Under the pieces are notes generated by a model. It was given only the letters and a program-made list of their open reading frames with translations. It made no database searches and was not told the origin of the DNA. Source: Blastocatellia bacterium (GTDB lineage Bacteria; Acidobacteriota; Blastocatellia; HR10). From it: 64,000 bases of DNA. Location of the stretch: NCBI GenBank assembly GCA_025055075.1, contig JANWYV010000045.1, positions 114,414 to 178,413 of the forward strand, given 5' to 3'. The translations under genes and the position numbers were made by a program. Within the stretch, counting starts at the first letter, position 1; each line of letters begins with the position of its first letter. Positions 517 through 760 of the stretch are shown in pieces.

Positions 517-535
517 ACGAAGGAGGTGAACGCCT

Positions 536-760
536 ATTAGCAAAGAGGACATGATTCCGGTGGATGGAACGGTCGTTGAGGCGCTGCCCAATGCGACCTT
601 CCGCGTGAAGCTCGATGGCGATGGCCATGAAGTGCTGGCGCACCTCTCTGGGAAGATGCGAAAGAACTACATTCGCGTCCTGCCCGGGGATCGCGTGCGC
701 GTGGAGCTCTCCCCATATGATCTGACACGAGGACGGATCACCTATCGTTACAGCAAGTGA
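536..760 (+). CDS. infA: Translation initiation factor IF-1, probable AUU start codon
   Basis: This is the S1/OB-fold factor IF-1, which binds the 30S A site during initiation. The body reads GTVVEALPNATFRVKL, then HLSGKMRKNYIRVLPGDRV, then VELSPYDLTRGRITYRY, matching IF-1 throughout. The first ATG (551) would drop the conserved N-terminal (M)xKED segment and would lie 24 bases from the Shine-Dalgarno AAGGAGGTGA (520-529). The codon ATT at 536 lies 6 bases after that ribosome-binding site and restores SKEDMIPVDG, which aligns with the usual AKEDNIEMQG. An in-frame TGA at 527-529 excludes any earlier start. I therefore choose ATT, giving 74 residues. AUU initiation is otherwise best known from infC, where it is used for autoregulation. 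Confidence 0.93.
   Translation: MSKEDMIPVDGTVVEALPNATFRVKLDGDGHEVLAHLSGKMRKNYIRVLPGDRVRVELSPYDLTRGRITYRYSK

What the first reader, a model, noticed from the sequence alone, without database searches (positions are those of the whole stretch)
520..560. infA appears to start with AUU
A strong Shine-Dalgarno AAGGAGGTGA is placed for the codon ATT at 536. The ATG at 551 is 24 bases away and would delete the conserved xKED N-terminus of IF-1. An in-frame TGA at 527-529 excludes earlier starts. AUU initiation is well known for infC, where IF-3 rejects the codon and so controls itself. An AUU-started infA would suggest that IF-1 is also tuned by initiation fidelity in this lineage.
Basis: partly seen in the sequence, partly recalled or inferred. 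Interest (0 to 1): 0.75.

Follow-up and report, generated by a model that had tools for sequence, protein, structure and literature searches.

The report
IF-1 gene starting at AUU

Summary
The window's infA (536-760, the only IF-1 match in its genome) has a 10-base Shine-Dalgarno (520-529), an in-frame stop inside it (527-529), and ATT at 536 where IF-1 begins. It is no sequencing slip: all 17 genomes held of four families in its class carry it (17 genes ATT, 1 ATC), while the loci read in four other families have ATG or TTG. Three of the 17 lack the internal Met, so the truncated reading fails there. NCBI's own protein for one relative already starts at the ATT. In the same class infC is read as AUU/AUC/AUA in 20 of 24 genomes, but as ATG in the window's own genus; rpmI and rplT use ATG.

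The survey widened the finding. All 30 loci read in one actinobacterial class start infA at AUU/AUC/AUA, and 69 of 90 loci read in Acidimicrobiia lack a canonical codon there (mostly CUG; 33 of the 69 have an upstream in-frame alternative).

Most likely mechanism (inferred): IF-3, helped by IF-1, rejects non-NTG codons, so IF-1 output is limited by the fidelity system it belongs to. Regulation is untested. Nine literature searches listed no report of AUU-started infA.

The parts
76..516 (+). HspR-like MerR-family regulator gene, directly upstream of infA; its stop (514-516) lies 19 bases before the ATT
   Evidence: ORF; Pfam MerR_1 70.8 bits; NCBIfam HspR model NF047375 100.7 bits, just under its cut-off of 105
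520..529 (+). 10-base Shine-Dalgarno AAGGAGGTGA
   Evidence: sequence; gap of 6 bases to the ATT; the same 10 bases in 8 of 18 related genes
527..529 (+). in-frame TGA that excludes any earlier start in this frame
536..538 (+). ATT, the inferred initiation codon of infA
   Evidence: ATT in 17 and ATC in 1 of 18 related genes
536..760 (+). infA, translation initiation factor IF-1, 74 codons and stop
   Evidence: TIGR00008 115.1 bits; PF01176 95 bits; 12 solved IF-1 sequences matched
551..553 (+). internal ATG (codon 6), the nearest canonical start in frame; taken as the start in truncated 69-aa database proteins of relatives

Best explanation
The window's infA has ATT at its conserved first codon behind a 10-base Shine-Dalgarno, so IF-1 is predicted to be initiated at AUU, which would likely hold its own synthesis down through the start-codon proofreading that IF-3 and IF-1 perform. 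Shown: the ATT, the Shine-Dalgarno, the in-frame stop that excludes earlier starts, conservation of this layout in 17 genomes, and one ordinary CAU initiator tRNA among the 44 tRNAs found. Inferred: fMet-tRNA reads the AUU (as it does on infC mRNA of E. coli). When IF-3 and IF-1 are plentiful, 30S complexes on AUU are rejected and little IF-1 is made; when they are scarce relative to ribosomes, AUU is accepted and IF-1 rises. The long Shine-Dalgarno would compensate for the weak codon so that basal output stays adequate. The likely result is that IF-1 supply is matched to the stringency of initiation.
For: Start codon: all 17 genomes held of four families of the class have ATT (17 genes) or ATC (1 gene) at this codon, with a match of 6 to 11 bases to the Shine-Dalgarno consensus and 3-6 bases between it and the codon. 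In 13 of 18 genes no ATG/GTG/TTG lies between the in-frame stop and the ATT/ATC. In 3 genomes (G006, G008, G009) the next canonical codon downstream is codon 14, which would remove the N-terminus and part of the conserved IxVxGTV stretch. The codons after the ATT vary mostly as coding sequence does (AGC/AGT, AAA/AAG, GAA/GAG, GAC/GAT), while the ATT keeps its third base: 17 of 18 against 26 of 71 for Ile codons inside the same genes (p = 6.6e-6, related sequences not corrected for). NCBI's protein P0004 (75 aa, contig of 24,384 bases, the length of G009:C127) begins M-SKKEEAIPV, where that locus offers only ATT. infC of the same class reads as AUU (6), AUC (11) or AUA (3) in 20 of 24 genomes, while rpmI is ATG in 24 of 24 hits and rplT in 22 of 24 motif hits, the other two being chance matches, so the codon is gene-specific. 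The same choice recurs elsewhere: 30 of 30 loci read in the class of G168 (26 ATT, 2 ATC, 2 ATA) and 69 of 90 loci read in Acidimicrobiia. Mechanism: PMC4611024 (passages) states that IF-3 and IF-1 antagonise non-canonical ligands, codons other than AUG/GUG/UUG included; PMC5472188 (passages) reports IF-3 repression of a GTC-started sigR and says that infC starts at ATT in E. coli and ATC in Streptomyces. Ordinary initiator tRNA.
Against: No expression, ribosome-profiling or peptide data were available; regulation is inference. In the window's own genus infC reads as ATG (4 of 4 genomes), so IF-3 may there be free of the loop that IF-1 would still be in. In 5 of 18 genes a canonical codon lies in frame upstream (G010 GTG 2 codons, G017 ATG 6 codons, G029 GTG 3 codons before the ATT; farther off in G021 and G040), so there the ATT is not forced. 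In 14 of the 18 genes the next canonical codon is an ATG at codon 6 and in one at codon 5, and the truncated protein still passes the IF-1 model (110.5 bits). Where hspR lies just upstream (family f1 and G006), translational coupling could play the main part. The leader folds no better than shuffles (z 0.76). No tRNA-Ile with a GAU or AAU anticodon was among the 44 found, so the tRNA set is incomplete.
Confidence: 0.62

Rival explanations
1. IF-1 starts at the internal ATG (551), giving a 69-residue protein without the SKED stretch; the ATT is untranslated.
For: ATG is the nearest canonical codon in frame; 69-aa proteins starting MIPV are what several sources of the protein collection list for relatives (P0005-P0007, P0010), and the short form passes TIGR00008.
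Against: The Shine-Dalgarno would sit 21 bases from the ATG instead of 6. G006, G008 and G009 have no Met there and no canonical codon before codon 14; nor has any of the 30 loci read in the class of G168 (next canonical codon 14 or later). Codons 2-5 vary mostly at synonymous positions and the residues match solved IF-1 sequences. NCBI's annotation of P0003, P0004, P0020 and P0024 keeps the longer N-terminus.
Confidence: 0.04
2. The AUU start is real but unregulated: a tolerated weak codon, compensated by the strong Shine-Dalgarno, that simply sets a low rate; the level of IF-3 or IF-1 makes no physiological difference.
For: Codons other than NTG work at low rates in general (recalled); infC of the same genus has gone to ATG; the codon varies between AUU, AUC, AUA, CUG, GUA, GUC and GUU among lineages, as if only weakness mattered.
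Against: Retention of a non-NTG codon in every genome read of several families, although one base change would restore ATG, suggests selection; the two factor genes infA and infC share the habit while rpmI and rplT do not.
Confidence: 0.25
3. infA is expressed by translational coupling to the upstream hspR-like gene; ribosomes ending hspR re-initiate at the nearby AUU, so IF-1 follows the heat-shock regulator.
For: In the window the hspR-like stop is 19 bases before the ATT, with the Shine-Dalgarno between; the same gene lies there in the other f1 genomes and in G006, overlapping infA in G005 (Pfam MerR_1 in G006). Re-initiation can use non-AUG codons with mutant initiator tRNAs and is sensitive to IF-3 (passages of PMC2268962).
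Against: In f4 genomes the upstream neighbour is another gene (DnaJ in G010, DEAD-box helicase in G017 and G025), yet infA still has ATT; the actinobacterial classes lack this neighbour in what was read.
Confidence: 0.08
4. The ATT is a sequencing or assembly error for ATG.
For: A single base separates ATT from ATG.
Against: The same codon stands in 16 genomes from independent assemblies, ATC in one more.
Confidence: 0.01

Closest known systems
infC (IF-3) autocontrol by its AUU start codon in E. coli (reference titles and passages seen in PMC5472188)
   Same: An initiation-factor gene with an AUH start codon and a Shine-Dalgarno, proposed to be read by the normal initiator tRNA and rejected by the fidelity factors.
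   Different: The gene is infA, the factor IF-1; repression here is inferred, not measured. IF-1 acts mainly as a helper of IF-3 and at 50S docking (PMC4611024, passages), so the loop would be shared or indirect.
sigR of Streptomyces with a GTC start repressed by IF-3 (PMC5472188, passages)
   Same: A conserved non-NTG start codon used as a control element and missed by gene callers.
   Different: sigR is a sigma factor, not part of the initiation apparatus, so its control is not a feedback loop on initiation factors.
Plastid infA starting at UUG (cited in PMC9845219, passages)
   Same: IF-1 genes with a non-AUG start.
   Different: UUG is a canonical bacterial start not rejected by IF-3; AUU is of the rejected class.
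36 bacterial genes preferring non-AUG starts (Gvozdjak and Samanta 2020, arXiv 2008.10758; cited; the number 36 and the content are recalled, text not held)
   Same: Translation genes recur among genes with non-AUG starts.
   Different: I could not check whether infA is on that list, or whether AUU, AUC or CUG starts of infA were counted.

Membership tests
Translation initiation factor IF-1 (infA equivalog, TIGR00008) | score over the curated cut-off, full length | tested here: met
   115.1 bits against 61.15, profile 1-69 of 69
Translation initiation factor IF-1 (infA equivalog, TIGR00008) | conserved N-terminal (A/S)KED stretch before the first strand | tested here: met
   SKED at codons 2-5, aligned to solved IF-1 sequences from residue 2 or 3
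Initiation-factor genes controlled through a rejected (AUH) start codon, as infC | AUH instead of NTG at the start, conserved in relatives | tested here: met
   17 ATT and 1 ATC in 18 genes of 17 genomes
Initiation-factor genes controlled through a rejected (AUH) start codon, as infC | Shine-Dalgarno placed for that codon and no canonical start that could serve instead | tested here: met
   in the window: 10-base Shine-Dalgarno, 6-base gap, stop inside it; 5 of 18 related genes do have an upstream in-frame NTG
Initiation-factor genes controlled through a rejected (AUH) start codon, as infC | translation repressed by IF-3 (or IF-1) and released by a change to AUG | not testable with these tools
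   needs a reporter assay
Initiation-factor genes controlled through a rejected (AUH) start codon, as infC | ordinary initiator tRNA with CAU anticodon | tested here: met
   one initiator tRNA with CAU, three G-C pairs in the anticodon stem and a C1-A72 mismatch (L368); the 44 tRNAs found lack a tRNA-Ile(GAU), so the set is incomplete

The most novel reading that the evidence does not exclude
IF-1 homeostasis through a proofread start codon is a general, repeatedly evolved circuit: whole lineages in two phyla keep infA on AUU, AUC, AUA, CUG, GUA, GUC or GUU so that IF-1, like IF-3, is made only when initiation stringency falls. In the window's genus the loop has moved from infC to infA.
Probability: 0.45. 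Interest if true: 0.85.

Novelty: new variant of a known kind. Interest (0 to 1): 0.7.

Why it matters
Control of an initiation factor by a start codon that the factors reject is a textbook circuit known from infC. Finding the rejected class of codons conserved on infA in families of Acidobacteriota and in two actinobacterial classes would make IF-1 supply part of the same circuit and gives natural variants (AUU, AUC, AUA, CUG, GUA, GUC, GUU) with which to ask how IF-1 and IF-3 share proofreading. It also shows that gene callers limited to ATG/GTG/TTG truncate, extend or misplace IF-1 in these lineages.

Tried and rejected
Start at Met-6: rejected from relatives without it. A GTG overlapping the Shine-Dalgarno (525-527) as start of a short leader peptide: in the window it is out of frame with infA and closes at TAG 537-539; relatives L014 and L015 lack it, so not pursued (by eye). 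A special initiator tRNA: the 44 tRNAs found were typed and none is an initiator with another anticodon. RNA structure at the start: no better than shuffles. Promoter and terminator scan of 1-1100: nothing found. Tree of 94 IF-1 rows: 66 columns, 49 of 87 inner forks open; the ATT/ATC genes of the class fall in one fork (support 91, not starred) together with one long-branched ATG row (L142), and the fewest changes between NTG and non-NTG starts are 6; it cannot date or count origins. I first took the TTG-started second copies of family f5 for the same gene as the ATT genes; the tree puts them in another clade (99), so I dropped that link. One search read only 17 of 24 infC genes; one search read all 24 and replaced the count. 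Two rows of Acidimicrobiia (L278, L279) and L242 were mis-anchored by the script and were read by eye as ATC, ATC and CTG; L278 and L279 also have ATG or TTG four codons upstream of the ATC, so they are ambiguous. L147 was matched in a wrong frame and not counted. Families f9 of the class and 9 of the 39 matched genomes of the G168 class were not read; in Acidimicrobiia 90 loci were read, taken from the matches of 142 genomes: the 76 listed first in order of E-value and 14 chosen by me from the weaker ones, which are mostly canonical.

Full report
What is there. The window's infA lies at 536-760 on the + strand. Upstream are an HspR-like MerR-family gene (76-516; Pfam MerR_1; HspR model 100.7 bits, just below its cut-off of 105), then AAGGAGGTGA (520-529) and six bases before ATT (536-538). 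The TGA inside the Shine-Dalgarno (527-529) is in frame, so nothing earlier can be the start. The product is IF-1 (TIGR00008, 115.1 bits), and it is the only IF-1 match in a genome that is 98.8% complete.

It is not an error. The class of the window was searched in full as held (162 genomes, 154 with a match). It is taken to be Blastocatellia because two of its contigs have the same lengths as contigs of records titled Pyrinomonadaceae and Blastocatellia. Its families f1 (6 genomes), f2 (3), f4 (7) and f7 (1) have ATT at this codon in 17 genes and ATC in one; G010 has two copies, both ATT. The upstream letters differ between genera but the Shine-Dalgarno and ATT stay. Loci read in f3, f5, f6 and f8 have ATG or TTG; f9 was not read. 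In f5 a second copy starts at TTG in most of those read, but the tree puts it in another clade.

It is the start, not an internal codon. In 13 of 18 genes there is no ATG, GTG or TTG between the in-frame stop and the ATT/ATC; the five exceptions are G010, G017, G021, G029 and G040. In G006, G008 and G009 the next canonical codon downstream is codon 14. The third base of the codon is T in 17 of 18 genes against 26 of 71 for internal Ile codons of the same genes (Fisher p 6.6e-6; relatedness not corrected).

It is gene-specific. Read by eye in all 24 infC loci fetched from the class (25 genomes searched), the start behind a Shine-Dalgarno is ATT in 6, ATC in 11, ATA in 3 and ATG in 4; 7 of the 20 non-NTG cases have some in-frame NTG at least 8 codons upstream. 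The four ATG cases are the window's own genus. rpmI is ATG in 24 of 24 hits and rplT in 22 of 24 motif hits (the other two are chance matches). So weak starts mark initiation-factor genes here, not genes in general, as far as these two controls go.

It recurs. Of 80 named loci from many phyla returned as best matches, 16 lack a canonical infA start by my reading (13 CTG, 2 ATC, 1 ATT). Their titles are actinobacterial (mostly Acidimicrobiales) except L089, titled only 'bacterium'. In the class of the ATT locus (L098, Actinomycetota MAG CSSed11_114R1; 40 genomes, 39 with a match) the 30 loci read start at ATT (26), ATC (2) or ATA (2); 28 of 30 have no canonical codon upstream to the stop, and the next one downstream is codon 14 or later. 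Start codon ATT 26 of 30 against 109 of 242 internal Ile codons (p 9.4e-6, same caveat). In the class of G162 (Acidimicrobiia by record titles; 148 genomes, 142 with a match) 90 loci were read: 69 lack ATG/GTG/TTG (CTG 58, GTA 5, ATC 4, GTC 1, GTT 1, three of these corrected by eye), 21 have one; 36 of the 69 have no canonical codon within 40 codons upstream in frame, so 33 leave an alternative open. Neighbour controls there: rpsM canonical in 28 of 28 hits; in the G168 class rpmJ is ATG in 26 of 26 and rpsM canonical in 26 of 26, ten of them read from the TTG just before the matched motif. Outside the class, the Acidobacteriota loci read have ATG or, in one family, TTG.

How it most likely works. 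PMC4611024 (passages) states that IF-3 and IF-1 act against complexes with non-canonical ligands, including start codons other than AUG, GUG and UUG. PMC5472188 (passages) reports such repression by IF-3 for sigR (GTC) and describes infC autoregulation. An AUU-started infA should therefore be translated poorly when the factors are abundant and better when they are scarce. The codon, its context and its conservation are shown; the repression and the feedback are inferred. The genome has one ordinary initiator tRNA, so no special tRNA is needed, though a tRNA-Ile(GAU) is missing from the set. The hspR-like gene 19 bases upstream makes translational coupling possible in f1 and in G006, but not in f4, where other genes stand upstream (DnaJ in G010, DEAD-box helicase in G017 and G025).

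A wrinkle. In the window's genus infC appears to start at ATG with a weak Shine-Dalgarno, while infA keeps AUU. If right, the rejected codon sits on only one of the two factor genes there; whether the loop moved from infC to infA is a testable idea, not a result.

Literature. Nine searches of the held library listed no paper describing AUU-, AUC- or CUG-started bacterial infA; plastid infA starting at UUG is cited in PMC9845219. Gvozdjak and Samanta 2020 (arXiv) is cited in PMC9094748, PMC11445065 and PMC9845219 but its text is not held, so infA may be on its list of non-AUG genes.

Verdict. The start call is near certain (about 0.95 by my estimate); feedback through initiation fidelity is the best mechanism at about 0.6. 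It is a new variant of a known kind of circuit, interesting because it is conserved, recurrent and directly testable.

Noticed in passing
L192-L280 (Acidimicrobiia), e.g. L214, L221, L235: infA there mostly starts at CTG, with GTA, GTC, GTT and ATC variants, behind Shine-Dalgarno-like GGAGG or GGTGG.
   Followed up: yes
L161, L160, L164, L165 (infC of G000-G003): infC of the window's genus reads as ATG-started with a shortened N-terminus, unlike the AUH starts in the other 20 genomes read.
   Followed up: partly
L158, L175, L179: infC of three f5 genomes appears to start at ATA behind GGAGGT.
   Followed up: no
window 76-516 and L001 3-428 (minus): infA sits in a heat-shock neighbourhood: an HspR-like gene just upstream and an Hsp70 (DnaK) gene beyond it; in f4 genomes DnaJ (L011) or a DEAD-box helicase (L013, L015) is the neighbour. 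It is not in the ribosomal-protein operon.
   Followed up: partly
L119, L120, L124, L126, L136, L140, L148, L149, L152-L154, L156, L157: Many f5 genomes carry a second, divergent infA copy starting at TTG with an AAGGAG Shine-Dalgarno, beside an ATG-started copy without a clear Shine-Dalgarno.
   Followed up: partly
tree: The AUU infA clade of Blastocatellia groups loosely (support 82) with actinobacterial IF-1 rather than with other acidobacterial IF-1; with 66 columns this is only a hint of transfer.
   Followed up: no
window 1654-3198: A 514-residue ORF without a Pfam match stands directly before a BadF/BadG/BcrA/BcrD ATPase-family gene (3244-5424).
   Followed up: no
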